Assembly (NCBI GenBank): GCA_027036135.1
Contig: JALVSY010000007.1
Coordinates: forward strand, 66,880 to 130,879
From: Pyrodictiaceae archaeon
GTDB lineage: Archaea; Thermoproteota; Thermoprotei_A; Sulfolobales; Pyrodictiaceae
Direction of reading: 5' to 3'
Length of the DNA stretch: 64,000 bases
The position numbers and the translations under genes are program-made. This document shows positions 21,596 through 32,944 of this stretch, piece after piece (positions within the stretch are counted from its first letter, which is position 1; each line of letters starts with the position of its first letter). The notes under the pieces are model-generated. The model was not told the DNA's origin, did not search any database, and worked only from the letters and a program-made list of their open reading frames with translations.

Positions 21596-21946
21596 TTAAA
21601 GGAGCAATACTTTCATTATCTTCTGGTTTATCTCGTCCCGTAGCCGCGGCCCTATGGAGCCTATTTCACCCGCTATAAGCCTCTTGTGCAACGTAGCTAT
21701 CTTGGATAACTTTAGCACAGAGGAGTCTGTCTTGAGCCCCGTGAGTCGGAACTCAGGATGCGACATGGTTATTAACACATCTGTCTCTGGGTCGTATTTG
21801 TCTACCCTAGAGGAGATAAACGCTACAACAACATCTCTCCCACTATCGTGGAGAACGAGTGCTGGCCGGAGCTTTCTTCCCCTAAGATCCGTAAAGGGAA
21901 AGTAGATAAGCACTATCTTACCCTTTAACGTCGTCCTCTGTGTAGA
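21596..21946 (-). CDS. PemK/MazF-family endoribonuclease toxin
   Basis: The 116-aa protein has KGKIVLIYFPFTDLRGRKLRPALVL, the start of the MazF/PemK fold, then VVVAFISSRVD and SVLKLSKIATLHKRLI. The ATG beginning STQRTTLKGK lies inside the end of the antitoxin gene (29-base overlap) and is preferred to the longer frame. MazF toxins cleave mRNA at short motifs. Partner antitoxin directly upstream. Confidence 0.85.
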   Translation of the reverse strand, partial: STQRTTLKGKIVLIYFPFTDLRGRKLRPALVLHDSGRDVVVAFISSRVDKYDPETDVLITMSHPEFRLTGLKTDSSVLKLSKIATLHKRLIAGEIGSIGPRLRDEINQKIMKVLLL

Positions 21947-22145
21947 CATCTGGTTCGTCCTCCAAGAACTCTCGGAGACTCTCTTCCTGTATGCGCAGAA
22001 GCCCATACTCCTCCAGAAACTCCACAAACTTGTCAAACTCATCGCTCACAATAATATCTAGGATAGCCTCTATTCTACGCCTAACCTTCTCGGCGTCAAC
22101 CCCCCTAGGCACCCTCACTACCACAGTTTCCGACACTATCATCAC
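21918..22145 (-). CDS. Antitoxin of the MazF-like toxin
   Basis: A 75-aa protein with an N-terminal strand (SETVVVRVPRGVDAEKVRRRI) and an acidic helical tail (FLEEYGLLRIQEESLREFLEDEPD). It overlaps the toxin gene. No DNA-binding family can be named with confidence from sequence, though a ribbon-helix-helix-type start is likely. ATG start. Confidence 0.7.
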   Translation of the reverse strand: MMIVSETVVVRVPRGVDAEKVRRRIEAILDIIVSDEFDKFVEFLEEYGLLRIQEESLREFLEDEPDVYTEDDVKG

Positions 22146-22555
22146 CCCACAAGCCTACAAGAAATCATAAGAACACTTTATTAGCGTTACCAAGAACTAT
22201 ATAACACATATCTATTCCCAGCCATCAAGGCTTGCAGGGAACCCCTACAAGGCCAACTTAGAGAGACCAGCTTCCCGTAGGAGTACAGAAGAACCACTAT
22301 GCCTACCACTCTTCCTTGCTATTATAATCCATTAAGGTCCTGCACGCGTTCGCGTCAAGACTTAGTCCGCTATCGCGCGAGAAACCAGTTAAGAATTCTT
22401 CAAGCCTGAGAATATCAGAGCGCTACTTAGCACATGACGGTTATTAGCCCAGAACTGTTTTTAGATTCTTTCAGACCTAGGAAAGGGTCATGTAGTCTTG
22501 CTTGCTCCATTATAATTATATTACTTGGGACGTGTTGAGAATACTTGTGGGGTCA
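22146..22555. other. Divergent intergenic region, AT-rich
   Basis: About 400 bases between the MazF-like and TumE/TumA-type loci. It contains minus-strand promoter-like sequence near 22195 (ctatataaca) and plus-strand tattataattatatta near 22508. A short inverted segment (cgcgttcgcg, 22346) is visible. No coding frame is credible. Confidence 0.3.
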
Positions 22556-22876
22556 ATGGTGCCTGGCCAAGCTAAGCTAGAGTTATCGGGAAACAAGGCC
22601 AGGGTACTGCTAAGAGCTCTCAGCGCTGAGGCTAGGAGACTAGAGCTAGAAATCGAGGCTACTAAGGAGAGGATAAGGATGTTTGAGGAAAAGTACGGGA
22701 TGAGTTCAGAGGAGTTTATGGCTAAGTATACCAGGGGTGAGATGGGTGACGAGGAGGAATACATGGAGTGGTACGGGGAACTCGTCTTCCTAGAAAGAGC
22801 TACCAGGGAGCTAGAGGAGCTGAGAGAGCTTGCAAGCACAGCCTCTCAGAGCCTATCTAGAAAGAGTCAGAGCTAA
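22556..22876 (+). CDS. TumA-like coiled-coil antitoxin
   Basis: A 106-aa helical protein with long charged helices (ALSAEARRLELEIEATKERIR) and the pattern FEEKYGMSSEEFMAKYTRGEMGDEEEYMEWYGEL that matches the coiled-coil partner of DUF6516 (TumE) toxins. ATG at 22556 fits a GGGGT upstream; the frame is open 18 codons earlier. Overlaps the next gene by 47 bases. Confidence 0.75.
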   Translation: MVPGQAKLELSGNKARVLLRALSAEARRLELEIEATKERIRMFEEKYGMSSEEFMAKYTRGEMGDEEEYMEWYGELVFLERATRELEELRELASTASQSLSRKSQS

Positions 22877-23246
22877 GATAGAAGAACTAGAACCATTAAT
22901 CTCTAGTGTTAGTCTGCACATGGATCAAAGAGGACCGACAAGGCTTGTCTTGAAGGGCACAATAATCTTCATAAATGGGACCAAACTACACTTCCTAGAA
23001 TATATTTCTGTGGAAGACAACATTCTTGAAAGAATCGTGTACTGGTTCCACTACGTTAAGCCCGATAATAAGCTAATATTTCGCTACGATAATGCGCCGC
23101 ATCACCCAGAGCTAGAGACTTTTCCACACCACAAGCACCTAGCTAATGGTACAGTAGTAGCGTCAGAGGAACAAACTCTACCACGAGTACTTGACGAGAT
23201 CAAAGCACTAGTGCTACGCTCCTTCAGGGGCAGCGACAATACATAG
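22830..23246 (+). CDS. TumE-like toxin (DUF6516 family)
   Basis: A 138-aa protein with the DUF6516/TumE hallmark LIFRYDNAPHHPELETFPHHKH, a run of His residues followed by the HLANGTVVAS block. The N-terminus (LRAYLERVRAKIEELEPLI) matches the family. TTG start inside the antitoxin gene. Family members are toxins of TumE/TumA-type TA systems; the biochemical target is not known to me. Confidence 0.82.
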   Translation: MQAQPLRAYLERVRAKIEELEPLISSVSLHMDQRGPTRLVLKGTIIFINGTKLHFLEYISVEDNILERIVYWFHYVKPDNKLIFRYDNAPHHPELETFPHHKHLANGTVVASEEQTLPRVLDEIKALVLRSFRGSDNT

Positions 23247-23268
23247 CAAATACATCTACATAGCCGCA

Positions 23269-23467
23269 CTAGTTTCCGACGAGGAGTCTAAGCAGACCAT
23301 AACTAAGAGTGAACGCCTCGGCTCTCTTTGCAAAGGAGGCGTAAAAAGACTCGATCTTCAAGATAGGAATAAGCGCTGTTAGAAAGGAGCCTATATGCTT
23401 AGGGTACTGGCCTCGTTCTCCCCTTACCCTTACTCGTAAATGCTGAGCCTCTTTCAGGCTTTGCGGC
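23269..23467 (-). pseudogene. Possible gene remnant after an ATPase
   Basis: Downstream of the ATPase stop, the minus strand reads a protein-like C-terminus: RVRVRGERGQYPKHIGSFL, then TALIPILKIESFYASFAKRA and TLSYGLLRLLVGN to a TAG. No start codon with a ribosome site is visible after the ATPase, so it may be the tail of a deleted gene. No family recognised. Confidence 0.3.
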
Positions 23468-24553
23468 TTATTTCTTGGCTTGTAGGCGTTCTTGTAGCAG
23501 TGTCCTGTATGCTGGTAGTTGCCATGCATAGTACTCTCCTATGCCTTGCTCGGGGCTCGGGGGCAGCGGTTTGCCTGCTAGTGTTGTTGCTGCCTTGTAT
23601 ATGAAGAGGTTGTGCTCTGTGAGTAGCCTTACTAGTCTCTGGAGCCTCGGCGAGGCCCTCGTCACGGCGGCGTCGGGGTCCTCTAGCAGCGTGTGTAGCT
23701 CTTCTAGGAGTCCCTCTGCCCTGATCCTCGCCAATACTGGCACGACTACGCTGATGTCTAGGTCATGGAGCCAGGCCTCGGTGCTCCACTGGTAAATGGT
23801 TGCTATCTGTATGAGTGCCCTAGGGTTTCCACCAGTCAGCTCCCAGGCCTCCTCCACCGCGTCTCTACTAGGTGCTCCTAGGATGCTTGCTAGTTCCTCG
23901 AATCCATCCCTGGGCATGCCCCATAGGAGCCTAAGACCGAGCCAAGTTGGGTGCCTCCTCAGCCTCTCCAGGCTAAGACCCTCACTCGTAGAAGCGACTA
24001 GTAGCGCTGAGGCTGGCTCCTTCTCAGCTAAGTCGTACTCTAGGAGACGTAATAGGCTCTTAACATAGGCCTCCACGGAGTCCAGGCCAATGGGGCGCGC
24101 AACATCATCAACCACTACCACTACGTGCTTGCCGCGAACAAGCCTCTTCTCAACACCTGCCAGTACACGGGTAACAGCATAGGCAAGCACAGCGCCAAGA
24201 GAACCCGAAGCACCCCGAGCAGCCTCTACTAATAGGCGGCGAAGCTCCTCAGAACCATAAATAGCCCGCCCAGGATCCCGCTCCTCCAACGCATCAATAT
24301 AGACAACAAGGTACCCCTCACGGCCACTAAGCCTCCTAGCAAACTCCCTCAACAACCTAGTCTTACCACAGCCCTCCGGCCCATAGAGATAAACTGGGAC
24401 ACCCGAGCCACGCTCAGCAAGCCCAAACAAGGCACCAAGCTCATCAACACGGTCAACAAACCTCAAACCCAGCAAGCCCTCGGCCCCAGGACGAGAAAGT
24501 ATAGCAAGAGGAGGAGCCAATAAACACCAGGCAAGAAAGACACCGAGTCCCAT
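23468..24553 (-). CDS. Archaeal-type AAA/STAND ATPase
   Basis: A 361-aa protein with Walker A GPEGCGKT at 58-65 and a Walker B-like KHVVVVVDDVARP near 145-157; a WELTGGNPRALIQIATIY block marks the STAND-type GxP region. C-terminal helical domain. The first 20 residues (VFLAWCLLAPPLAILS) are hydrophobic; the start could lie later, near LRFVDRVDELGAL. One of four ATPases of this superfamily in the window. Confidence 0.8.
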   Translation of the reverse strand: MGLGVFLAWCLLAPPLAILSRPGAEGLLGLRFVDRVDELGALFGLAERGSGVPVYLYGPEGCGKTRLLREFARRLSGREGYLVVYIDALEERDPGRAIYGSEELRRLLVEAARGASGSLGAVLAYAVTRVLAGVEKRLVRGKHVVVVVDDVARPIGLDSVEAYVKSLLRLLEYDLAEKEPASALLVASTSEGLSLERLRRHPTWLGLRLLWGMPRDGFEELASILGAPSRDAVEEAWELTGGNPRALIQIATIYQWSTEAWLHDLDISVVVPVLARIRAEGLLEELHTLLEDPDAAVTRASPRLQRLVRLLTEHNLFIYKAATTLAGKPLPPSPEQGIGEYYAWQLPAYRTLLQERLQAKK

Positions 24554-24644
24554 GTCCTCTAGGCAACTCTTTATGAACCTAGGAAAGCTATACTGGAGGG
24601 GCAGGGAATAATGCGATTAGGTGCTCTAGAGAATATGGGGCACG

Positions 24645-24678
24645 TTGCTTTACTGCTTCTGTAAGCAGTAGTAAGCAA
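24645..24678. repeat. Long imperfect inverted repeat (hairpin) in divergent intergenic region
   Basis: Left arm ttgctt-tactgctt, loop ctgt, right arm aagcagta-gt-aagcaa: an 8-bp perfect stem extended by a 6-bp stem across a two-base bulge. It lies between the divergent ATPase (minus) and the unknown operon beginning at 24778 (plus), well placed to be an operator, or a structured RNA near the 5' end of either transcript. There is no U-run, so it is not a classic terminator. Confidence 0.6.
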
Positions 24679-24749
24679 GACTACAAAAGGACTCTCTTGT
24701 ACATTTCCTTGACTCGTGTTTACTGAAGTAAGGTTATTGTAGAGCTATG

Positions 24750-24758
24750 TGATGCTTA
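24750..24758 (+). promoter_or_regulatory. TATA box of the unknown operon (leaderless)
   Basis: The box gcttaaatc sits about 25 bases before the ATG at 24778, the distance from an archaeal TATA box to the transcription start, so the mRNA probably begins at or next to the ATG. No Shine-Dalgarno is visible ahead of that ATG. Confidence 0.5.
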
Positions 24759-24777
24759 AATCCCTGGGGCTAAGTTT

Positions 24778-25224
24778 ATGCCCGAGAAGGTTTATCGCGT
24801 CGTGGTGAGTAAGCCTGGTATAGTTACCTTGGTTGATGGTAGTAAGCTTATCCTGCGCGTCGTCATAGTTGGTGTGAAGTATACGGGGTTCTCCCCGCTA
24901 GGTGGCGTGAACTTCGCTATTAAGCCCGCTGGTGGTGTCTCGTCGCTCTATGTGCCGGAGGAACTGAGAAACATGGTGAGGGATAAGCCTGTTAGCCCGC
25001 CTGATAGGCTTCCTGAGAATGGCTGGGAGCTAGTAGACATAGCTGGGCAGGAGCCAGCGGAGGAGGAGGTAGAGCTCGATGTAAATAACAGGAAGTACCG
25101 GGTCAAGGTTATAGGCGAGGCCTCAATGGTCTCGCGGAACACTAGTTACAAGACACAGCTAGGCGAACCACTATACTGGGTACAGTGGAGCGTCAAGGTG
25201 CAGTGGAGACCCCTAGAGAGGTGA
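24778..25224 (+). CDS. Unknown beta-rich protein, first gene of an orphan operon
   Basis: A 148-aa protein, mostly beta strand, with VYRVVVSKPGIVTLVDGSK at the start, a Gly-rich middle (SPLGGVNFAIKPAGGVSSL) and an ending WVQWSVKVQWRPLER. No signal peptide or membrane segment, and no family recognised. Apparently leaderless. It is followed after four bases by the next gene. Confidence 0.6.
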   Translation: MPEKVYRVVVSKPGIVTLVDGSKLILRVVIVGVKYTGFSPLGGVNFAIKPAGGVSSLYVPEELRNMVRDKPVSPPDRLPENGWELVDIAGQEPAEEEVELDVNNRKYRVKVIGEASMVSRNTSYKTQLGEPLYWVQWSVKVQWRPLER

Positions 25225-25228
25225 GAGA

Positions 25229-25549
25229 ATGGCGACGCAGCCCATTCCTCTTCGATACCCCGTGCCTAGCAGCGTCGAGAGACTACAGGATATCAGTGGC
25301 CAGTTATTCGGCGACAGCACTGAGCTAACCGGGCAGGGCAGCGACGTGACGCAAGTACTTCAGTTCCCTGAGATAACGATGACCACTATGAGAACCCTTG
25401 TAGAGTCCCTCATAAAGGCTTTGTGGAGAAACATTGAGCCCAGAAAAGCCCTGCCGCTCCGACCAGGAGAAATAAGGAGAATAAGCAGCAACTTGTTAGT
25501 CGAGAAAACACTTGATGGCAAAATCATACTATACGAGGTAATAGAGTAA
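25229..25549 (+). CDS. Unknown protein, second gene of the orphan operon
   Basis: A 106-aa protein with an N-terminal Pro-rich stretch (QPIPLRYPVPSSVERLQD) and a helical middle (MTTMRTLVESLIKALWRN), ending in a beta hairpin (LVEKTLDGKIILYEVIE). ATG start preceded by GGTGAGAG. Stop overlaps the next gene's start (TAATG). Unrecognised. Confidence 0.6.
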   Translation: MATQPIPLRYPVPSSVERLQDISGQLFGDSTELTGQGSDVTQVLQFPEITMTTMRTLVESLIKALWRNIEPRKALPLRPGEIRRISSNLLVEKTLDGKIILYEVIE

Positions 25550-25770
25550 TGGACAACGAATTCAGTGACATCGACATAGGTGCCCAGATAGAGTACAAAA
25601 AGGTGAAAAAGATACTAGAGCTAGACCCCCGCGTCTTCAAGCCATGCGAGATAAAACAGTTCGAGAAAGGCATGCTACGCAAACAAACCTACCTAGTCCA
25701 CTTCGACGGCAAGAAATGGGACATACTAATCATAGGCAGCAACGGCATAGAACGCTACATACTCGAGTAA
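25549..25770 (+). CDS. Unknown small protein, third gene of the orphan operon
   Basis: A 73-aa acidic then basic protein: DNEFSDIDIGAQIEYKKVKK, then helix and a C-terminal beta block (TYLVHFDGKKWDILIIGSNG). The ATG overlaps the previous stop by one base. No motif recognised; it may form a complex with the two upstream products (inference from coupling). Confidence 0.55.
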   Translation: MDNEFSDIDIGAQIEYKKVKKILELDPRVFKPCEIKQFEKGMLRKQTYLVHFDGKKWDILIIGSNGIERYILE

Positions 25771-25841
25771 ACAATCCCCGGCCACACCGGCCAAGAACAA
25801 TATTAGTTCTCTCCATATAGCTGGGCCACTCGTCAGAATCT

Positions 25842-26492
25842 TTGCCTTCCCGCCACATCCTACACCTAGCTTCTCCTGCTAGTCCCTCTCCGCTCCATAC
25901 CCAGTACCTATCCTATGATCCCGCACGAGAGAACATAAATGCGAAAACCTATACGGAGTGGAATATAGGCGATAGTTCCTTGAAAATCCTCACTATCAAG
26001 GACTTTAACCAAGCCTTAGAACATATTAGAAAAGGCCTCAAAGCAAGCAGGAATACTCTAGACCAGGGTAGCGGGACACACGACAAGAGGCTAAGGAAGC
26101 TATTCTTCGAGACCTGCCGAGAAGCACTCATCAAGAAGCTAGGAATGAGCACGGAGGCTTTCCTGGAAACATGCTTCGTAGAAGGCTTCAACAAGATCCC
26201 CGGCAAGAAACCAACACTCTTCGGCTCCAAAACCTACCCAGATGCCGTCATAAAGCTCGGCAACGGAGAACTCGTCGCCATCGAGCTAGACTGGGGCAAC
26301 AAGGGAAGCAAACTAAGAAACGCCCTAGCCAAAGCGGGCATGCACAAACTCATCGGGAACTACGCCCAGACAATACTATTCTTCCTAGTCTATCCAGTCC
26401 AAGCAAAGCAAAAGATACAGATAACCGAGCTCGAACAAAAAGTACTAAAGTTCTACGAAGAAGAACTATCAACTAAGCTAATTATACTTTAA
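25842..26492 (+). CDS. Possible PD-(D/E)XK-type nuclease
   Basis: A 216-aa protein with TTG start. The C-terminal half has a nuclease-like core: KTYPDAVIKLGNGELVAIELD, with Asp134 then Glu148 and Asp150 where many PD-(D/E)XK enzymes have ExK, followed by WGNKGSKLRNALAKAG. The first 90 residues are helical with many basic residues (RKGLKASRNTL, HDKRLRKLFFE). Assignment is suggestive only; the missing catalytic Lys could be supplied by Lys154 or Lys157. Lies 70 bases after the small upstream gene, so same-strand operon membership is probable. Confidence 0.45.
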   Translation: MPSRHILHLASPASPSPLHTQYLSYDPARENINAKTYTEWNIGDSSLKILTIKDFNQALEHIRKGLKASRNTLDQGSGTHDKRLRKLFFETCREALIKKLGMSTEAFLETCFVEGFNKIPGKKPTLFGSKTYPDAVIKLGNGELVAIELDWGNKGSKLRNALAKAGMHKLIGNYAQTILFFLVYPVQAKQKIQITELEQKVLKFYEEELSTKLIIL

Positions 26493-26755
26493 AACCTTTG
26501 CGTAACCTCCACCTTATCACTTTATTATTTATAACCTTATCTTTAGTTATACCTGTACACTTTCTGACTTATCCTTATCCCGGTAACCATAACAACCACA
26601 CTCCCGCTCGGCTACGCACAATTGGCACGCTCCTGGAAGCACTCAGTATTGCTACGTCTTAGCCTAGTTCTTGTTTCCAAGACATAGACAGTGATCCACA
26701 ATATGTAGTCTCTAGTAGTATTACGTATCAGCGAATACATGGAGAGGAGTAGAAA
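26493..26755. other. AT-rich intergenic region
   Basis: AT-rich block with stretches such as tttattatttataacc near 26521. It may carry the promoter for the following small gene. No gene, repeat or RNA signature was recognised. Confidence 0.3.
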
Positions 26756-26992
26756 TTGCCTAGGAGAAAGCGCCGCGTGAGCCTGCGAAGGAGAATTGCA
26801 GCAAGAAAAGCCTGGGACACGAGGACGAGGAACGAGGGAGTAAGACAAGCTCTTGGCTCATTGCTATCGTATGTGGATATTGTAGGTAAGGCTAAGAGCC
26901 TAAAGGATATTATTATGGGCGTGTTGAAGATCGCCGCGCCAAGACTGTATCGCAAGCATAGGCTCTTAAAGCGAATAGATAAAGCACTTTAG
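26756..26992 (+). CDS. Small very basic protein of unknown function
   Basis: A 78-aa protein with about one third Arg or Lys (PRRKRRVSLRRRIAARKAW) and a hydrophobic helix in the second half (SLKDIIMGVLKIAAPRLY). TTG start after GGAGAGGAG. Basicity suggests nucleic acid or ribosome contact, but no family is recognised. Confidence 0.5.
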   Translation: MPRRKRRVSLRRRIAARKAWDTRTRNEGVRQALGSLLSYVDIVGKAKSLKDIIMGVLKIAAPRLYRKHRLLKRIDKAL

Positions 26993-27065
26993 CCAAAAAG
27001 ACCGGGTTTTTTATAAAATCATTATTCTCTTGTGCGCCTAGTGTTTCTCGGAGGGGCTGTGTTTC

Positions 27066-27842
27066 TTGGCTAAGCTGAGGAGGCTTGTTGAGAGAATTCG
27101 GGGCTATTATGAGGAGTTTATTGAGGTTCTTCGGGGCTATGAGCGTGGTGAGGAGCGTGTTTATTCTGTCGAGAGGCTTGCTGAGCTCTTAGCTCAATCT
27201 ATACTTGATTTCGCGGCTGTGCTTGTTGCCCGGGAGCGTGGTGCGAAGCCGAGTACTTATCGCGAGCTCGCTAGGTGGCTTGCTCGGCGCCTTGGCCTAA
27301 GAGGAGACCTGGCCGGGTTTCTTGAGGGCCTTGCGGGTTTCCGCAATGTGCTTGTCCACATGTATGCCGAGATAGACGAGGAACTCGAGATGGAGGCTTT
27401 CCGCGAGATAGCCGAGAAGACCCCGGGGGTCATCGCGGCGCTCAAGGAGCTGGCTGGTAGTGATCCGTGTCTGGACGAGGTTGTGCCCCGGATCCGGCTT
27501 GTTGCTCGGCGTCTTGGGCTGCGCTATGTGCTTCTGTTCGGGTCCTTGGCTAGGAATGGGTGTGGTAGGGATGTGGACTTGGTTGTTAAGCTTGGGCGTA
27601 GGCCGCGTAGCTTGCTCGAGGTTGGGAGACTCCAGGTTATCTTCGAGGACGAGCTAGGGGCTCCTGTAGACCTCGTGGTTGTTGACGCTGGTGTTGACCC
27701 TGGCTTGGCGAAGACTATTGTTGATGAGGCCTTGCTGGTGTACGGGGACTCCGAGGAGGCTGAGCGCGACCTACTCCGCCTCTACAAGCTCTACCTAGAC
27801 TACGCCCAGTACCTAGAGAAGCTAGCAAGGATGAGACAATAG
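27066..27842 (+). CDS. Fused HepT-like HEPN RNase and MntA-like nucleotidyltransferase
   Basis: A single 258-aa chain carrying both halves of an HEPN/MNT system. Residues 1-130 are a HepT-type HEPN (DUF86) domain with the RNase motif RNVLVHMY, R93-x4-H98-x-Y100. Residues 145-215 are a minimal nucleotidyltransferase: VLLFGSLARNG, D169 and D171 in GCGRDVDLVVK, and D202 in APVDLVVVD. In studied HepT/MntA pairs, MntA AMPylates the Tyr of this motif and silences the RNase; here both are covalently linked. TTG start after GGAGG. No antitoxin-like gene alongside. Confidence 0.85.
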   Translation: MAKLRRLVERIRGYYEEFIEVLRGYERGEERVYSVERLAELLAQSILDFAAVLVARERGAKPSTYRELARWLARRLGLRGDLAGFLEGLAGFRNVLVHMYAEIDEELEMEAFREIAEKTPGVIAALKELAGSDPCLDEVVPRIRLVARRLGLRYVLLFGSLARNGCGRDVDLVVKLGRRPRSLLEVGRLQVIFEDELGAPVDLVVVDAGVDPGLAKTIVDEALLVYGDSEEAERDLLRLYKLYLDYAQYLEKLARMRQ

Positions 27843-28012
27843 GTAAGCCAGGAGGTTCTGGACTATTATATATCACAGTAGGTAGTTGCTAGATTATACG
27901 CGTTGATTTATCTGTGCTTGTACGAAGCTGTTATCCTCCTGGGGCATTTTCTTCTTGCCTCGGTGCGCTTAATTAGTTTGTCACAGTCTATACCGGGTAT
28001 CGGGGGCTCGGC

Positions 28013-28285
28013 GTGGCCAAGGTAAGAGCCAGTATCTATGTTGATAGGAAGGTTTGGGAGCGGTTTCGGGCGTATGCTGCGAGGAGGGGTGTTGATGCTA
28101 ATAGGTTGCTCGAGGAGCTCATGATGGATGAGGTTGTTGACCTTGTTCTTGACGAGGTGTTGCTCCGGGCTGCTGGGGGTGAAGAGGAGGAGGTGCTGGA
28201 TTTTGAGCCTGTTGAGCCGCGGGGCTCTGTGAGCGAGCTTGTGAGGATTGCCAGGGATGAGAGGGCGCGTAGTATATCTGGATAG
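28013..28285 (+). CDS. vapB: VapB-type antitoxin
   Basis: A 90-aa protein with VRASIYVDRKVWERFRAYA, a ribbon-helix-helix start, and an acidic C-terminal tail (FEPVEPRGSVSEL). GTG start. Its end overlaps the toxin start by about 29 bases. Confidence 0.8.
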   Translation: MAKVRASIYVDRKVWERFRAYAARRGVDANRLLEELMMDEVVDLVLDEVLLRAAGGEEEEVLDFEPVEPRGSVSELVRIARDERARSISG

Positions 28286-28712
28286 TAGCGCTATTGTGAA
28301 GAGGTATGTGCGGGAGCCTGGGAGCGAGACGCTGAGGAGGTTGTACCTTGAGGCCTCTGCGGGTGGGCTTGTTCTCTCCTTTAGTGTATGGAATATTGGG
28401 GAGGTTCTCGGTGTCCTGGACCGGGCTAGGAATACTGGGAGGCTCGGGGACGAGGAGTACCTGTTGGCTAGGAGGAGGTTCTTGCTTGAGACCCGTAGGC
28501 TCCTTAGGCAAGGCCGGTTAGTGATCGTGCCTATCCGTGTAAGGATTCTTGAGGAGTCCTGGAGGCTTGTTGAGAAGCACCATATATACCAGGCTGATGC
28601 GTTGCAGGTAGCGTCTGCTAAGCATGTTAGCGCCACAGAGTTCCTCGTAGCGGATAAGCGGCTACACAAGGTAGCTCTCAGCGAGGGACTGAGTAGCGTG
28701 CTACTCGGATAA
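28257..28712 (+). CDS. vapC: VapC toxin, PIN-domain ribonuclease
   Basis: The 151-aa PIN protein has VVYLDSSAIVKRYVREPG, IGEVLGVLDRA, YQADALQVASAKH, and FLVADKRLHKVALSEG, the four family motifs in their usual order. The ATG beginning RGRVVYLD is preferred to the frame's first start three codons earlier. Long overlap with the antitoxin supports coupling. Confidence 0.88.
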   Translation: MRGRVVYLDSSAIVKRYVREPGSETLRRLYLEASAGGLVLSFSVWNIGEVLGVLDRARNTGRLGDEEYLLARRRFLLETRRLLRQGRLVIVPIRVRILEESWRLVEKHHIYQADALQVASAKHVSATEFLVADKRLHKVALSEGLSSVLLG

Positions 28713-28848
28713 CATCTCTCACAATCACAATACGTTTCTTCCTTTAGTACTATATTACTAGCTGCTTACTTGTTCCTTGGTTGCTGATGGTGTTGTGCCC
28801 TTGTTTTGGGACTGGTTAACTATTTCCAAGATTTCGGTAGATTTGAGT

Positions 28849-28867
28849 GAAACCAGTTATAAAAAAA
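28849..28867 (+). promoter_or_regulatory. Strong TATA promoter of the por operon
   Basis: A purine-rich BRE-like gaaacc is followed by ttataaaaaa. The TATA centre lies about 27 bases before the GTG of porG, so transcription should start at the start codon. The messenger is therefore probably leaderless, as in many Thermoproteota operons. Confidence 0.65.
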
Positions 28868-28889
28868 GGGTACACGGGGTATTGTATAG

Positions 28890-29540
28890 GTGGAGGCTCC
28901 TCGATCTATGCCCATGTCGCCTAGCCACCCCGTTATTGATTCTCTCAGCGCCTTGAGGGAGACTACTGAGCTAAGGTTCCATGGCCGTGGAGGACAGGGC
29001 GCTGTTACTGCCGCATCTATACTGGTTCAGGCAGCACTGCTGGAGGGTAAGTGGGGCCAGGCTATCCCTAGCTTCGGTGCCGAGCGTAGAGGCGCACATG
29101 TACTAGCGTTCGCGAGGATTGCTCCCCGGCCGGTACCGGTTCATAGCATGGTTAGGAGACCCGATGTACTAGTCGTCCTCGACCCCGGCCTGCTCATGGT
29201 TGAGCGCGACAGAGTCCTCGCGGGCATTAAGCCAGGGGTAAAAATAGTAGCTAACCTCCCCGAGCCAATCGACCTAGGGGGCATAGGGGCCAGGCTATAC
29301 GTGGTCAATGCCACCAGGATTGCTAAGGAGCTCGGCCTCGTCGTGGCGGGGTGGCCCGTGGTTAACACCGCTATGCTCGGCGCACTAGCGAGGGCTACCG
29401 GGCTCGTCTCAATAGACGCTGTTATGGAGGCTATCCGGTTGTTCTGGGAAGCGAGGCCAAAGATAGCTGAGGCCAACGCTATGGCGGCGAAGAGGGCTTA
29501 CGAGGAGCTACAAGAGGTAACGAGTACAAGGCACGACTAA
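28890..29540 (+). CDS. porG: Pyruvate:ferredoxin oxidoreductase gamma subunit
   Basis: A 216-aa gamma subunit of a four-subunit 2-oxoacid:ferredoxin oxidoreductase. Domain signature: LRFHGRGGQGAVTAASIL, WGQAIPSFGAERRGAHV, and PDVLVVLDPGLL. It begins with about 25 residues before the conserved core (GTG start, leaderless). With porD, porA and porB it converts pyruvate and CoA to acetyl-CoA while reducing ferredoxin. The preceding TATA box drives all four genes. Confidence 0.92.
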   Translation: MEAPRSMPMSPSHPVIDSLSALRETTELRFHGRGGQGAVTAASILVQAALLEGKWGQAIPSFGAERRGAHVLAFARIAPRPVPVHSMVRRPDVLVVLDPGLLMVERDRVLAGIKPGVKIVANLPEPIDLGGIGARLYVVNATRIAKELGLVVAGWPVVNTAMLGALARATGLVSIDAVMEAIRLFWEARPKIAEANAMAAKRAYEELQEVTSTRHD

Positions 29541-29591
29541 GCCCTCCGCATTGTTTTCTTCACGCGTCTCTTGCCCCGGGTGGGGTGGTTC

Positions 29592-29960
29592 ATGGCCGTG
29601 TCCGAGTCGGAGCAGAGGAGAGGAGTAGTAGCCGTAATCGAGCCTGGTGGCCACAAGCTCCCCTTATCGATGGCCGGGCCAGGTGCTATGGGTAAGACGG
29701 GTTATTGGAGAACCCAGCGCCCCGTGGTTAACTATGAGCGGTGTACTGGTTGCTACCTATGCTGGCTCTATTGCCCCGATAACGTGATAGAGATGGTGCC
29801 TGGTAAGGGGCCTCGTGGCCAAGACATACCGGTCATAGACTATGATTATTGTAAGGGCTGTGGCGTCTGCGCCGCTGTTTGTCCCGTTAAGGCGATAGAC
29901 ATGGTTGACGAGTCCAAGTTCCTGGCAAAGGAGAAGGAGGAGGGTGACGGGAATGCCTAA
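29592..29960 (+). CDS. porD: Pyruvate:ferredoxin oxidoreductase delta subunit, 2x[4Fe-4S] ferredoxin
   Basis: A 122-aa ferredoxin-like subunit. It has two CxxCxxCxxxCP motifs at Cys51/54/57/61 and Cys87/90/93/97. The ATG at 29592 follows a GGGGTGG ribosome site and gives a normal-length protein. Electrons pass from the catalytic subunits through these clusters to free ferredoxin. The stop overlaps porA by eight bases. Confidence 0.92.
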   Translation: MAVSESEQRRGVVAVIEPGGHKLPLSMAGPGAMGKTGYWRTQRPVVNYERCTGCYLCWLYCPDNVIEMVPGKGPRGQDIPVIDYDYCKGCGVCAAVCPVKAIDMVDESKFLAKEKEEGDGNA

Positions 29961-31164
29961 GCTACTAGCTATGAGGGGTAACGAGGCTGTAGCATACGCC
30001 GCCAAGTACGCTAGGGTAGAGGTGGTCGCTGCTTACCCGATAACCCCGCAGACAATCATAGTGGAGAAGATAGACGAGCTAATATCCAAGGGCGAGATGG
30101 ATGCCGAGATGATACATGTTGAGAGCGAGCACAGCGCCCTAGCAGCGACCTACGGGGCAGCAGCTGGAGGCGTCCGAGCCTTCACTGCGACGAGTAGCCA
30201 CGGGCTCATGTACATGTACGAGGTACTGTGGTGGACAGCGGGTAGCAGGATACCAGTAGTAATGGCCGTCGTTACCAGGGCGATGGGGCCGCCGTGGAAT
30301 ATTCACGTGAGCCACGAGGACATACTAGCTACCCGCGACACCGGCTGGCTAGTCTCAATGGCCGAGAACAACCAGGAGGCATTCGACCTAACGCTCCAGA
30401 TGTTCAGGATAACGGAGGACCCGAGAGTCTACCTACCAGGCATAGTTGGCCTCGACGGCTTCATACTGAGCCATACTGTTGAGCCCGTGGAGCTACCCGA
30501 CCAAGAGACAGTGGACGAGTTCCTGCCACCGAGGAGACAGCCCTACGTAATGGAGCCAGGAGAGCCAAAAGCGATGGGCAACCTGGTGCCGGACGAGTAC
30601 TTCGAGGAGCTGAGAATGGATATGCAGCAGAGCATGGAGAACGCGGTAAAGGTTATCCGGGAGGTTGGCAGGGAGTACGCGAAGTACTTTGGCAGAGACT
30701 ATAGCGAGCTAGTAGAGTGCTACAAGTGCAGCGACGCGGACTACATAGTAGCCGGTACCGGGTCGTGGATGGGTGACGCCAAGATAGCTGCTGACAAGCT
30801 GAGAGAGAAGGGCTACAGGGTAGGAGTAATGAGGCTTCGCTGGATAAGGCCATTCCCCTGGAGCGATGTGAGAGAGGCGGCAATGAGCAAGAAAGCAGTA
30901 ATCGTGATGGATCGCAGCCTCTCAACTGGTCACGCCGGGCCACTCTTCCTAGAGCTTAGCAGCGCCCTAGAGGCAAAGCCAAGCATGATAGGAGTACCAG
31001 CGGGCATCGGTGGAGTCGATATATCCTACGAGGACATCGAGCGCTTCACCGAGAAGGCTATACAATTGGTAGAGGAGCACGGAAGAGTCTACATACCAGC
31101 GATGTGGTACCACCTAGGCAAGATTTTCCCCACCTACCCCTCGAGCAACGTCAAGCTAGACTAA
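29953..31164 (+). CDS. porA: Pyruvate:ferredoxin oxidoreductase alpha subunit
   Basis: A 403-aa alpha subunit. AMRGNEAVAYAAKYARVEVV and AYPITPQTIIVEKI are the family N-terminal block, with the TPP domain continuing to ESEHSALAATYGAAAGG. The C-terminal block contains ADYIVAGTGSWMGDAKIAAD and VIVMDRSLSTGHAGPL. The ATG at 29953 lies in the end of porD. Binds thiamine pyrophosphate together with beta. Confidence 0.93.
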   Translation: MPKLLAMRGNEAVAYAAKYARVEVVAAYPITPQTIIVEKIDELISKGEMDAEMIHVESEHSALAATYGAAAGGVRAFTATSSHGLMYMYEVLWWTAGSRIPVVMAVVTRAMGPPWNIHVSHEDILATRDTGWLVSMAENNQEAFDLTLQMFRITEDPRVYLPGIVGLDGFILSHTVEPVELPDQETVDEFLPPRRQPYVMEPGEPKAMGNLVPDEYFEELRMDMQQSMENAVKVIREVGREYAKYFGRDYSELVECYKCSDADYIVAGTGSWMGDAKIAADKLREKGYRVGVMRLRWIRPFPWSDVREAAMSKKAVIVMDRSLSTGHAGPLFLELSSALEAKPSMIGVPAGIGGVDISYEDIERFTEKAIQLVEEHGRVYIPAMWYHLGKIFPTYPSSNVKLD

Positions 31165-31183
31165 CCCGTTGAGGTGACTCCCC

Positions 31184-32089
31184 GTGGCCGTGAACATTAA
31201 GAAGCTCCCCAAGAAACCATACGTGATACCGGGTCACGCCGCATGCCCAGGCTGCCCAGAGTCAATGGGGTTCAAGTACCTAGGCATGGCTCTCGGCGAC
31301 AAAGCAGTAGTAGTGATCCCCGCGGGCTGTAGCTCCGTCATCCAGGGCCTGTGGCCCCGGCAGGGCTTTGGGCTACCCATACTAAACATAGTATTCGCGG
31401 CAGCAGCCTCCACGGCGAGCGGGCTAGCTAGGGCGCTGAAGAGGAGGGGCGTTGACGCCCAGGTAGTTGTGTGGGCTGGTGACGGTGGCACAGCCGATAT
31501 AGGGTTCCAGGCGCTAAGCGCAGCAGCTGAGAGAGGCGAGGACATAATCTACATCTGTGTAGACAACGAGGCCTACATGAACACCGGTATACAGAGGAGC
31601 GGCCTAACACCCTACGGAGCATGGACCACGACGACCCATACCGGTAAGAAGCAGTTCAAGAAACCAATGCCACAGATAGTTGCTGCGCACCGAGTACCCT
31701 ATGTAGCAACGGCCAGCGTGGGCTACCCATGGGACTTCATAGCCAAGCTAAAGAAGGCAGCGAGCATAAGGGGCTTCAAGTACATCCACCTACACGCCCC
31801 CTGCCCCGTGGGGTGGAGATTCGACCCAAGCCTAACAGCAAAGATAGCCCAGCTAGCAGTAGAGACCGGTGCATGGATACTATACGAGTACGAGAACGGC
31901 AAACTAAGACTCAACCCGCCAAGCAACCGGCTCATAGACCCGAAGAAGAGGAAGCCAATAGAGGAGTACCTGAAGCTGCAGGGAAGGTTCCGCCACCTCA
32001 AGCCAGAGGACATAGAGATGATAAAGAAAGAGATAGAGACCAACTGGGAAGACATAATCCGAGCACTAAAAATACAAGGCGATCTCTAA
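31184..32089 (+). CDS. porB: Pyruvate:ferredoxin oxidoreductase beta subunit
   Basis: A 301-aa beta subunit with two N-terminal cluster cysteines (GHAACPGCPES, Cys21 and Cys24), the TPP-binding GDG site (VVWAGDGGTADIGFQAL), and IIYICVDNEAYMNTGIQRSG. TPP and the [4Fe-4S] cluster of this subunit carry the reaction. GTG start. Last gene of the operon. Confidence 0.93.
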   Translation: MAVNIKKLPKKPYVIPGHAACPGCPESMGFKYLGMALGDKAVVVIPAGCSSVIQGLWPRQGFGLPILNIVFAAAASTASGLARALKRRGVDAQVVVWAGDGGTADIGFQALSAAAERGEDIIYICVDNEAYMNTGIQRSGLTPYGAWTTTTHTGKKQFKKPMPQIVAAHRVPYVATASVGYPWDFIAKLKKAASIRGFKYIHLHAPCPVGWRFDPSLTAKIAQLAVETGAWILYEYENGKLRLNPPSNRLIDPKKRKPIEEYLKLQGRFRHLKPEDIEMIKKEIETNWEDIIRALKIQGDL

Positions 32090-32244
32090 ACAACGATGCT
32101 ATAGACCTTCAGGGATTTTTACATCCGCTATCCCGGTAAACTCATAGCGCTTCTCTAGAGGGCGCTGAAGCGATAGGATGGAGAACATTTATCACCTTGT
32201 TACTCGCTTATCCTATCTTCTTATTCGGGGTAAGGGCGGTACTG

Positions 32245-32498
32245 ATGAGCTTAGCTAGGCAGATACGTGTCGGGAAAAGAAGAACAATTACTATACCGGA
32301 GAGTGTCGCAGAGGGATTAGGTATTAAGGAGGGCACTGTTCTAGAGCTACGCGTAGAGGATAATAAGATCATTTTGGTACTTGTGAGAGACGCAATAACG
32401 CTTTCTCTCCGGGGAGAAAATTCGCAAAAATCACCCTCAAGGAGCTAGAGGAGGAGAGTATAGAGCAGCAAAGGGGCTACATTAATGGAGAGAGCTAA
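32245..32498 (+). pseudogene. AbrB-family VapB antitoxin with frameshift near its 3' end
   Basis: Residues 1-55 read a normal AbrB antitoxin: RQIRVGKRRTITIPESVAE and EGTVLELRVEDNKIILV. At the run of A at 32417-32420 one base appears missing; restoring it gives EKFAKITLKELEEESIEQ and a tail overlapping the toxin start, the usual antitoxin end. Without it the frame gives QKSPSRS and an early stop, so the toxin-binding tail is lost. Could be real decay or a homopolymer sequencing error. Confidence 0.7.
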
Positions 32499-32944
32499 GT
32501 GCCGAGTACTAATTGATACTAGTTTTCTTCTTCCCGCTCTTGGCGTGGAAGTTGAGAAAAGTGTTATGTCAGCAATACCTCTATTCGGGAGACTAAGAGT
32601 CTATTATCTTGAAGCTGGTCTATTGGAGGCTCTCTGGAAGGTTTTTGAAAATTGTTCCGGAGAACAAGCTGGGCCTTGTAGAGACGGGTATTAGGGCTAT
32701 CCGAGCGACTTATCAAGTACTGGCTCCTCCGCCGAGGGCTTTTGTCAAGGCAATAAGACTTTATCGTAATGGGCATAGGGATTATATAGATGACTTGTAT
32801 TACGCGACGGCTTTGTTTACAGAGACGTCGTTTCTCACAATAGATTATAGCTTCATGGAGTTTCTTCGAGGCCGCGGATACCCGGTAGAAGGAGTCGTGA
32901 TTACTCCGATGCTCCGAGACTATATTAAAAGTTGCAGGGGCTAA
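32485..32944 (+). pseudogene. PIN-domain VapC toxin with frameshift
   Basis: The first frame reads RVLIDTSFLLPALGVEV and IPLFGRLRVYYLEAGLLEAL. At the five-T run 32642-32646 an extra base shifts it; dropping one T restores ALWKVLKIVPENKLGLVETG and the other frame, YIDDLYYATALFTETSFLTID with the third acidic patch, to a stop at 32942. Only half of the PIN fold is made in each frame. Both members of this TA pair are frameshifted, so the locus is probably inactive. Confidence 0.75.

What the first reader, a model, noticed from the sequence alone, without database searches (positions are those of the whole stretch)
24645..26492. Leaderless orphan operon of four unknown genes with a long hairpin upstream
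Three coupled small genes (148, 106 and 73 aa, four-base gap then TAATG overlap) without recognised family, followed by a possible PD-(D/E)XK nuclease with unusual ELDW in place of ExK. The divergent intergenic region holds a 14-bp imperfect hairpin. An operon of unknowns ending in a nuclease next to a STAND-type ATPase and a HEPN/MNT fusion is a classical setting for an undescribed defence or mobile-element system.
Basis: partly seen in the sequence, partly recalled or inferred. Interest (0 to 1): 0.72.

Follow-up and report, generated by a model that had tools for sequence, protein, structure and literature searches.

The report
Archaeal toxin-antitoxin-like cassette with swappable effectors
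Three small unknown genes in a heat-loving archaeon form one version of a patchily spread gene cassette in which one undescribed beta-protein is paired in different species with different toxin-like proteins, several of known RNA-cutting families, pointing to a new, modular kind of toxin-antitoxin or cell-defence unit.

Summary
The three coupled genes are real: A 24778-25224 (148 aa), B 25229-25549 (106 aa), C 25549-25770 (73 aa), all under purifying selection. The fourth gene (D, probably 25980-26492) is a real PD...ELD nuclease-like gene but is not part of the cassette. The upstream hairpin is short, near chance level and not conserved.

None of the four matches Pfam, NCBIfam, PHROGs or PADLOC. 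Gene A occurs patchily (25 of 229 genomes of the class, 28 of 398 sampled across the phylum; Thermoproteota by inference), often decayed, and was probably moved horizontally. It is nearly always the first gene of a short operon whose other genes change: B-C here and in four other genomes; elsewhere a gene with a HEPN-like R-x4-H motif, a PaREP1 (HEPN) protein, a PIN protein, a small RelE/DUF4258-like protein, or unknowns. On the tree of A, PaREP1 and PIN partners were exchanged. The protein encoded after A usually has an unusually S/T/Q/P/G/N-rich, variable N-terminal tail. A is predicted with high confidence as an all-beta protein without a match in the PDB.

I read this as a modular toxin-antitoxin-like (possibly abortive-infection) unit: A constant partner, C probable toxin, B adaptor or antitoxin. 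No activity has been shown.

The parts
24778..25224 (+). gene A, 148 aa: constant first gene of the cassette; predicted all-beta protein
   Evidence: distribution; alignment; AlphaFold2 pLDDT 93.5, pTM 0.83; no fold match
25229..25549 (+). gene B, 106 aa: variable S/T/Q/P/G/N-rich N-terminal tail and conserved C-terminal part; proposed adaptor or antitoxin
25549..25770 (+). gene C, 73 aa: proposed small toxin; sits where HEPN/PIN genes sit in sister cassettes; nearly always found with A and B
   Evidence: (low-confidence four-strand model)
25980..26492 (+). gene D (ORF listed as 25842-26492): PD...ELD nuclease-like protein; neighbour, judged not part of the cassette
24651..24670 (.). short inverted repeat upstream of A; not conserved, close to chance; judged not part of the system

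Best explanation
A-B-C is one version of a modular toxin-antitoxin-like operon. Shown: A is a constant, first-position partner; the genes after it are exchanged between cassettes and include known toxin folds (PaREP1/HEPN, PIN) and toxin-like proteins. Inferred: C is the toxin of this version, a small probable RNase or translation inhibitor; A and B hold it in check; A, an all-beta protein, binds the flexible N-terminal tail of the protein encoded next to it, much as a dedicated chaperone binds its client in toxin-antitoxin-chaperone systems. Loss of A or B, by stress proteolysis or by a virus, would free C to stop growth.
For: Same-strand partner directly after A in nearly every locus not cut by a contig end: A-B-C in five genomes; A + ~140-210 aa gene + gene with invariant R-x4-H; A + PaREP1 protein (Pfam E 2e-13 to 7e-16); A + middle gene + PIN protein (E 2.5e-5, over the cut-off, in L063; 0.0025, under it, in L104); A + 91-103 aa protein with an H...R...R pattern. 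Partner exchange on the tree of A: at least 3 changes for PaREP1, two for PIN, with a PIN row sister to a PaREP1 row (95/83). Patchy spread: 25/229 and 28/398 genomes, with broken copies. Horizontal transfer: A is 73% identical to that of a different-family genome whose PorA is 57% identical, but only ~64% to that of the same-genus genome whose PorA is 88% identical. Protein after A: N-terminal 50 residues enriched in S/T/Q/P/G/N by 0.19 against 0.005 for 261 background ORFs. Neighbourhood: PemK/MazF, TumE, HepT-NTase, RHH+PIN and a MazE-type protein within about 11 kb.
Against: No activity is known. C has no family or fold match and its model is poor (pLDDT 64). A has no recognisable DNA-binding or antitoxin domain. 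The R-x4-H gene has no Pfam match. The tail enrichment was measured in only three related sets of proteins, start codons are uncertain, and the small DUF4258-like partners lack a long tail. One locus (L097) has A without a recognisable partner, and one (L120) has a B-C-like pair without A, so A is not strictly needed.
Confidence: 0.5

Rival explanations
1. Defence system with A as the conserved sensor or trigger and the downstream gene as an exchangeable effector (abortive infection), rather than a classical addiction module.
For: Constant first protein with exchangeable nuclease-type partners, patchy distribution and horizontal transfer.
Against: No regular association with other defence genes was seen: CRISPR-like repeats near 2-3 loci only; no PADLOC match; A shows no recognised ligand-binding fold.
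Confidence: 0.22
2. A itself is a direct, promiscuous antitoxin that blocks each toxin; B is only a linker or a second toxin subunit.
For: Two-gene cassettes A + PaREP1 and A + DUF4258-like protein leave A as the only candidate antitoxin.
Against: Three-gene versions carry a middle gene in the antitoxin position (for example before the PIN gene, L063, L104), and a B-C-like pair occurs without A.
Confidence: 0.18
3. Remnant of an archaeal virus or plasmid, the proteins being structural or replication factors unrelated to toxins.
For: Unknown small proteins and patchy spread.
Against: No match in viral contigs, phages or plasmids, no PHROG, and partners elsewhere are HEPN and PIN proteins.
Confidence: 0.05

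Closest known systems
Toxin-antitoxin-chaperone (TAC) systems with SecB-like chaperones (PMC5105189, PMC6377645)
   Same: Three genes; a beta-rich third protein; a flexible tail on the neighbouring protein that such a protein might bind
   Different: No SecB match for A in Pfam or among the 50 listed PDB fold matches; A is the first gene; the tail is N-terminal, whereas the TAC tail is a C-terminal extension of the antitoxin
PaREP1/PaREP8 HEPN proteins of Thermoproteota (PMC2701414, PMC3710099)
   Same: One class of A-linked partner carries this domain with an invariant H
   Different: The passages read describe no partner like A; the window's version has no PaREP1 gene in the cassette
VapBC (PIN) type II toxin-antitoxin systems
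   Same: In L063 and L104 a middle gene plus a PIN gene follow A
   Different: Extra gene A; the middle genes match no known antitoxin family
Promiscuous antitoxin networks (PMC10440598; details of the PanA antitoxin from memory)
   Same: One conserved partner combined with many toxins
   Different: No Pfam match of A to a known antitoxin family; A keeps first place, and several versions carry a further gene

Membership tests
Type II toxin-antitoxin system | Short operon of small, closely spaced or overlapping genes | tested here: met
   4-nt gap and 1-nt overlap; same order in five genomes
Type II toxin-antitoxin system | Known toxin domain | tested here: inconclusive
   Met in sister cassettes (PaREP1, PIN); not recognisable in C
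Type II toxin-antitoxin system | Antitoxin with DNA-binding domain (common, not universal) | tested here: not met
   No RHH, HTH or AbrB match in A or B
Type II toxin-antitoxin system | Toxicity and neutralisation | not testable with these tools
   needs expression tests
Type II toxin-antitoxin system | Patchy, mobile distribution | tested here: met
TAC with SecB-like chaperone | SecB family or fold of the third protein | tested here: not met
   No Pfam SecB match; no SecB among the 50 PDB matches listed, none with E <= 0.001
HEPN, for the third gene of the A-B'-X cassettes | R-x4-6-H motif | tested here: met
   R95 and H100 invariant in all six rows
HEPN, for the third gene of the A-B'-X cassettes | HEPN fold or profile match | tested here: inconclusive
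   No Pfam or PDB sequence match; structure not predicted
DUF4258/RelE-like, for the 91-103 aa partner | Profile match to the family | tested here: not met
   No Pfam match; resemblance of conserved H, R, R only
PD-(D/E)XK nuclease (gene D) | PD...(D/E)xK core | tested here: inconclusive
   PD...ELD conserved in three homologues, with a conserved K in ALAKA further on; no profile match

The most novel reading that the evidence does not exclude
Gene A is the founding member of a new class of universal partner proteins with a new all-beta fold, specific to Thermoproteota, that controls structurally unrelated toxins by holding the flexible tail of the protein encoded next to it; the A-linked cassettes would form one new combinatorial toxin/defence system, with C a new toxin family.
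Probability: 0.33. Interest if true: 0.8.

Novelty: new variant of a known kind. Interest (0 to 1): 0.6.

Why it matters
Defence and stress systems of hyperthermophilic archaea are poorly known beyond CRISPR-Cas and restriction (a 2026 survey, PMC12988326, reports generally lower defence prevalence in Thermoproteota). A constant partner shared by HEPN, PIN and unknown toxin-like proteins would offer a partner for at least some PaREP1-type genes, which were noted to form no operon with MNT antitoxins (PMC2701414), give a handle to find more effectors by looking downstream of A, and supply a probable new toxin family (C) and a possible new protein fold to test.

Tried and rejected
SecB-like chaperone: suggested by the two long beta hairpins of A, but no SecB appeared in Pfam or in the PDB matches listed. 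Viral or plasmid origin: no match. D as part of the operon: rejected. Hairpin as operator: not conserved, near chance. Common ancestry of B and C, B and B', or of the R-x4-H gene and PaREP1 proteins: profile comparisons gave nothing. CRISPR link: CRISPR-like repeats near 2-3 loci only. Structure of C: low confidence with five sequences, matches meaningless. First named-genome scan with A alone found nothing; the second found five loci, in MAGs called Thermoprotei, Desulfurococcales and Hyperthermus.

Full report
Observation. The three coupled ORFs are at the stated place: A 24778-25224, B 25229-25549, C 25549-25770. They are protein genes: the same order A-B-C recurs in G004 (L018), G019 (L017), G175 (L053) and G188 (L055), with identities to the window of about 63-73% for A, 43-49% for B and 63-74% for C. 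Every NG86 dN/dS value that could be computed lies between 0.05 and 0.37; several pairs gave no value because synonymous sites are saturated. None of the proteins matches a profile in Pfam, PHROGs, PADLOC or NCBIfam at a meaningful E-value.

What does not belong. D is a real but rare gene. Homologues in G241 (41% identity) and, weakly, G398 support a shorter protein: the G241 match begins at residue 45, so the start is probably TTG 25980 and the protein 170 aa; PD...ELD is conserved, the W is not. D is absent beside the other A-B-C operons and from the other 57 relatives searched. The hairpin has 8-bp perfect arms, is reached by 14 of 300 shuffles and is not found upstream of the other A-B-C operons.

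Gene A is the key. With an eight-row alignment, A is found in 25 of 229 genomes of the class and 20 of 87 genera; with 19 rows, in 28 of 398 genomes sampled across the phylum. Together that is about 41 genomes. Many copies are broken by stops or are fragments (L023, L026, L058, L066, L108-L110, L113), as expected of dispensable or selfish modules. No match was found in viral contigs, phages or plasmids.

Partners. Directly after A, on the same strand, lie: B-C (window, L017, L018, L053, L055); a ~140-210 aa gene plus a ~141-147 aa gene with invariant R95 and H100, an R-x4-H motif (L020, L022, L025, L060, L061 and others); one protein of 223-253 aa with a C-terminal PaREP1/HEPN domain (L019, L064, L098, L099; L100 and L111 by alignment); a middle gene plus a PIN protein (L063 above the Pfam cut-off, L104 weakly); a 91-103 aa protein with conserved H, R, R (L024, L105-L107), which resembles DUF4258/RelE-type toxins by eye but matches no profile; and unknown proteins of 288 aa (L102; a broken counterpart in L103 assigned by eye), 353 aa (L057) and 125 aa (L101). 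Two A copies run off contig ends (L021, L065), and L097 has A without a recognisable partner. A distant B-C-like pair without A occurs in G012 (L120 3852-4368), so B-C may be a unit of its own.

Exchange and transfer. On a maximum-likelihood tree of 29 A proteins the partner types cluster (10 changes, shuffled mean 19), yet PaREP1 needs at least three changes and PIN two; L063 (PIN) is sister to L064 (PaREP1) with support 95/83. A of the window is 73% identical to that of G188, another family, whose PorA is 57% identical, but about 64% to that of G004, same genus, whose PorA is 88% identical. This is hard to explain by descent alone.

Structure. AlphaFold2 gives A a confident fold (pLDDT 93.5, pTM 0.83): two long beta hairpins (23-38/44-58 and 105-125/131-145), other strands and one short helix. 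No PDB or viral structure matches at E <= 0.001. The shape made me think of SecB, but SecB is not among the listed matches. C is predicted poorly (pLDDT 64; four strands) and has no match.

Tail. In B, in the middle gene of the R-x4-H cassettes and in the PaREP1 proteins, the first 50 residues are richer in S, T, Q, P, G and N than the rest (mean difference 0.19, n = 19, against 0.005 for 261 background ORFs; 1.1% of the background reach that mean, and none reaches B) and are poorly conserved. The rows are related, the background includes overlapping loci and the start codons are uncertain, so the p-value (4e-11) overstates the case, but the pattern recurs in three partner types that show no detectable relationship. 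The small DUF4258-like partners lack it.

Setting. The window around the cassette is dense in toxin-antitoxin genes: PemK/MazF-like (21596-22042), TumE (22830-23246), HepT-nucleotidyltransferase fusion (27066-27842), RHH + PIN (28013-28712), MazE-type (32197-32448). The same genome has about 20 PaREP1 matches.

Mechanism. Shown: constant A, exchangeable partners including known toxin folds, mobility, decay. Inferred: C is the toxin here, because it holds the place of the HEPN and PIN genes; B is adaptor or antitoxin; A binds the tail of the next protein and so keeps the toxin in check. In two-gene versions A is the only candidate antitoxin. A defence role with A as sensor fits the same data. 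The literature searched names PaREP1 proteins as HEPN proteins that form no operon with MNT (PMC2701414, PMC3710099), and none of the passages read describes A; the library lacks most subscription journals.

Organism. 

Noticed in passing
window 21596-32944: Cluster of toxin-antitoxin genes around the finding: PemK/MazF-like, TumE, HepT-NTase fusion, RHH + PIN, MazE-type antitoxin.
   Followed up: partly
L120 3852-4368: Distant B-C-like gene pair without gene A, followed by a 245-aa unknown protein, in a genome (G012) that also has an A cassette of the R-x4-H type on another contig.
   Followed up: partly
L097 4042-4506: Intact gene A, 67% identical to the window's, without a recognisable partner downstream, in a genome outside the window's order (G513, same phylum).
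   Followed up: partly
L101 around 7673: Long CRISPR-like array (run of 29 repeats in a simple scan) about 3 kb from an A cassette with a 125-aa partner.
   Followed up: no
L126 1507-2031 and L127 1462-1944: Small family of PD...ELD nuclease-like proteins related to D; in L126 two ORFs that look like an AbrB-type antitoxin and a PIN toxin lie beside it.
   Followed up: partly
window 26756-26992: 78-aa arginine-rich ORF between D and the HepT-NTase fusion, without a significant family match.
   Followed up: no
G000, whole genome: About 20 PaREP1 (HEPN) matches in this genome, one with an internal stop and several partial.
   Followed up: no
L057 59-1117: 353-aa partner of A with a very weak match to effector-associated domain EAD1 (E 0.11).
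   Followed up: no
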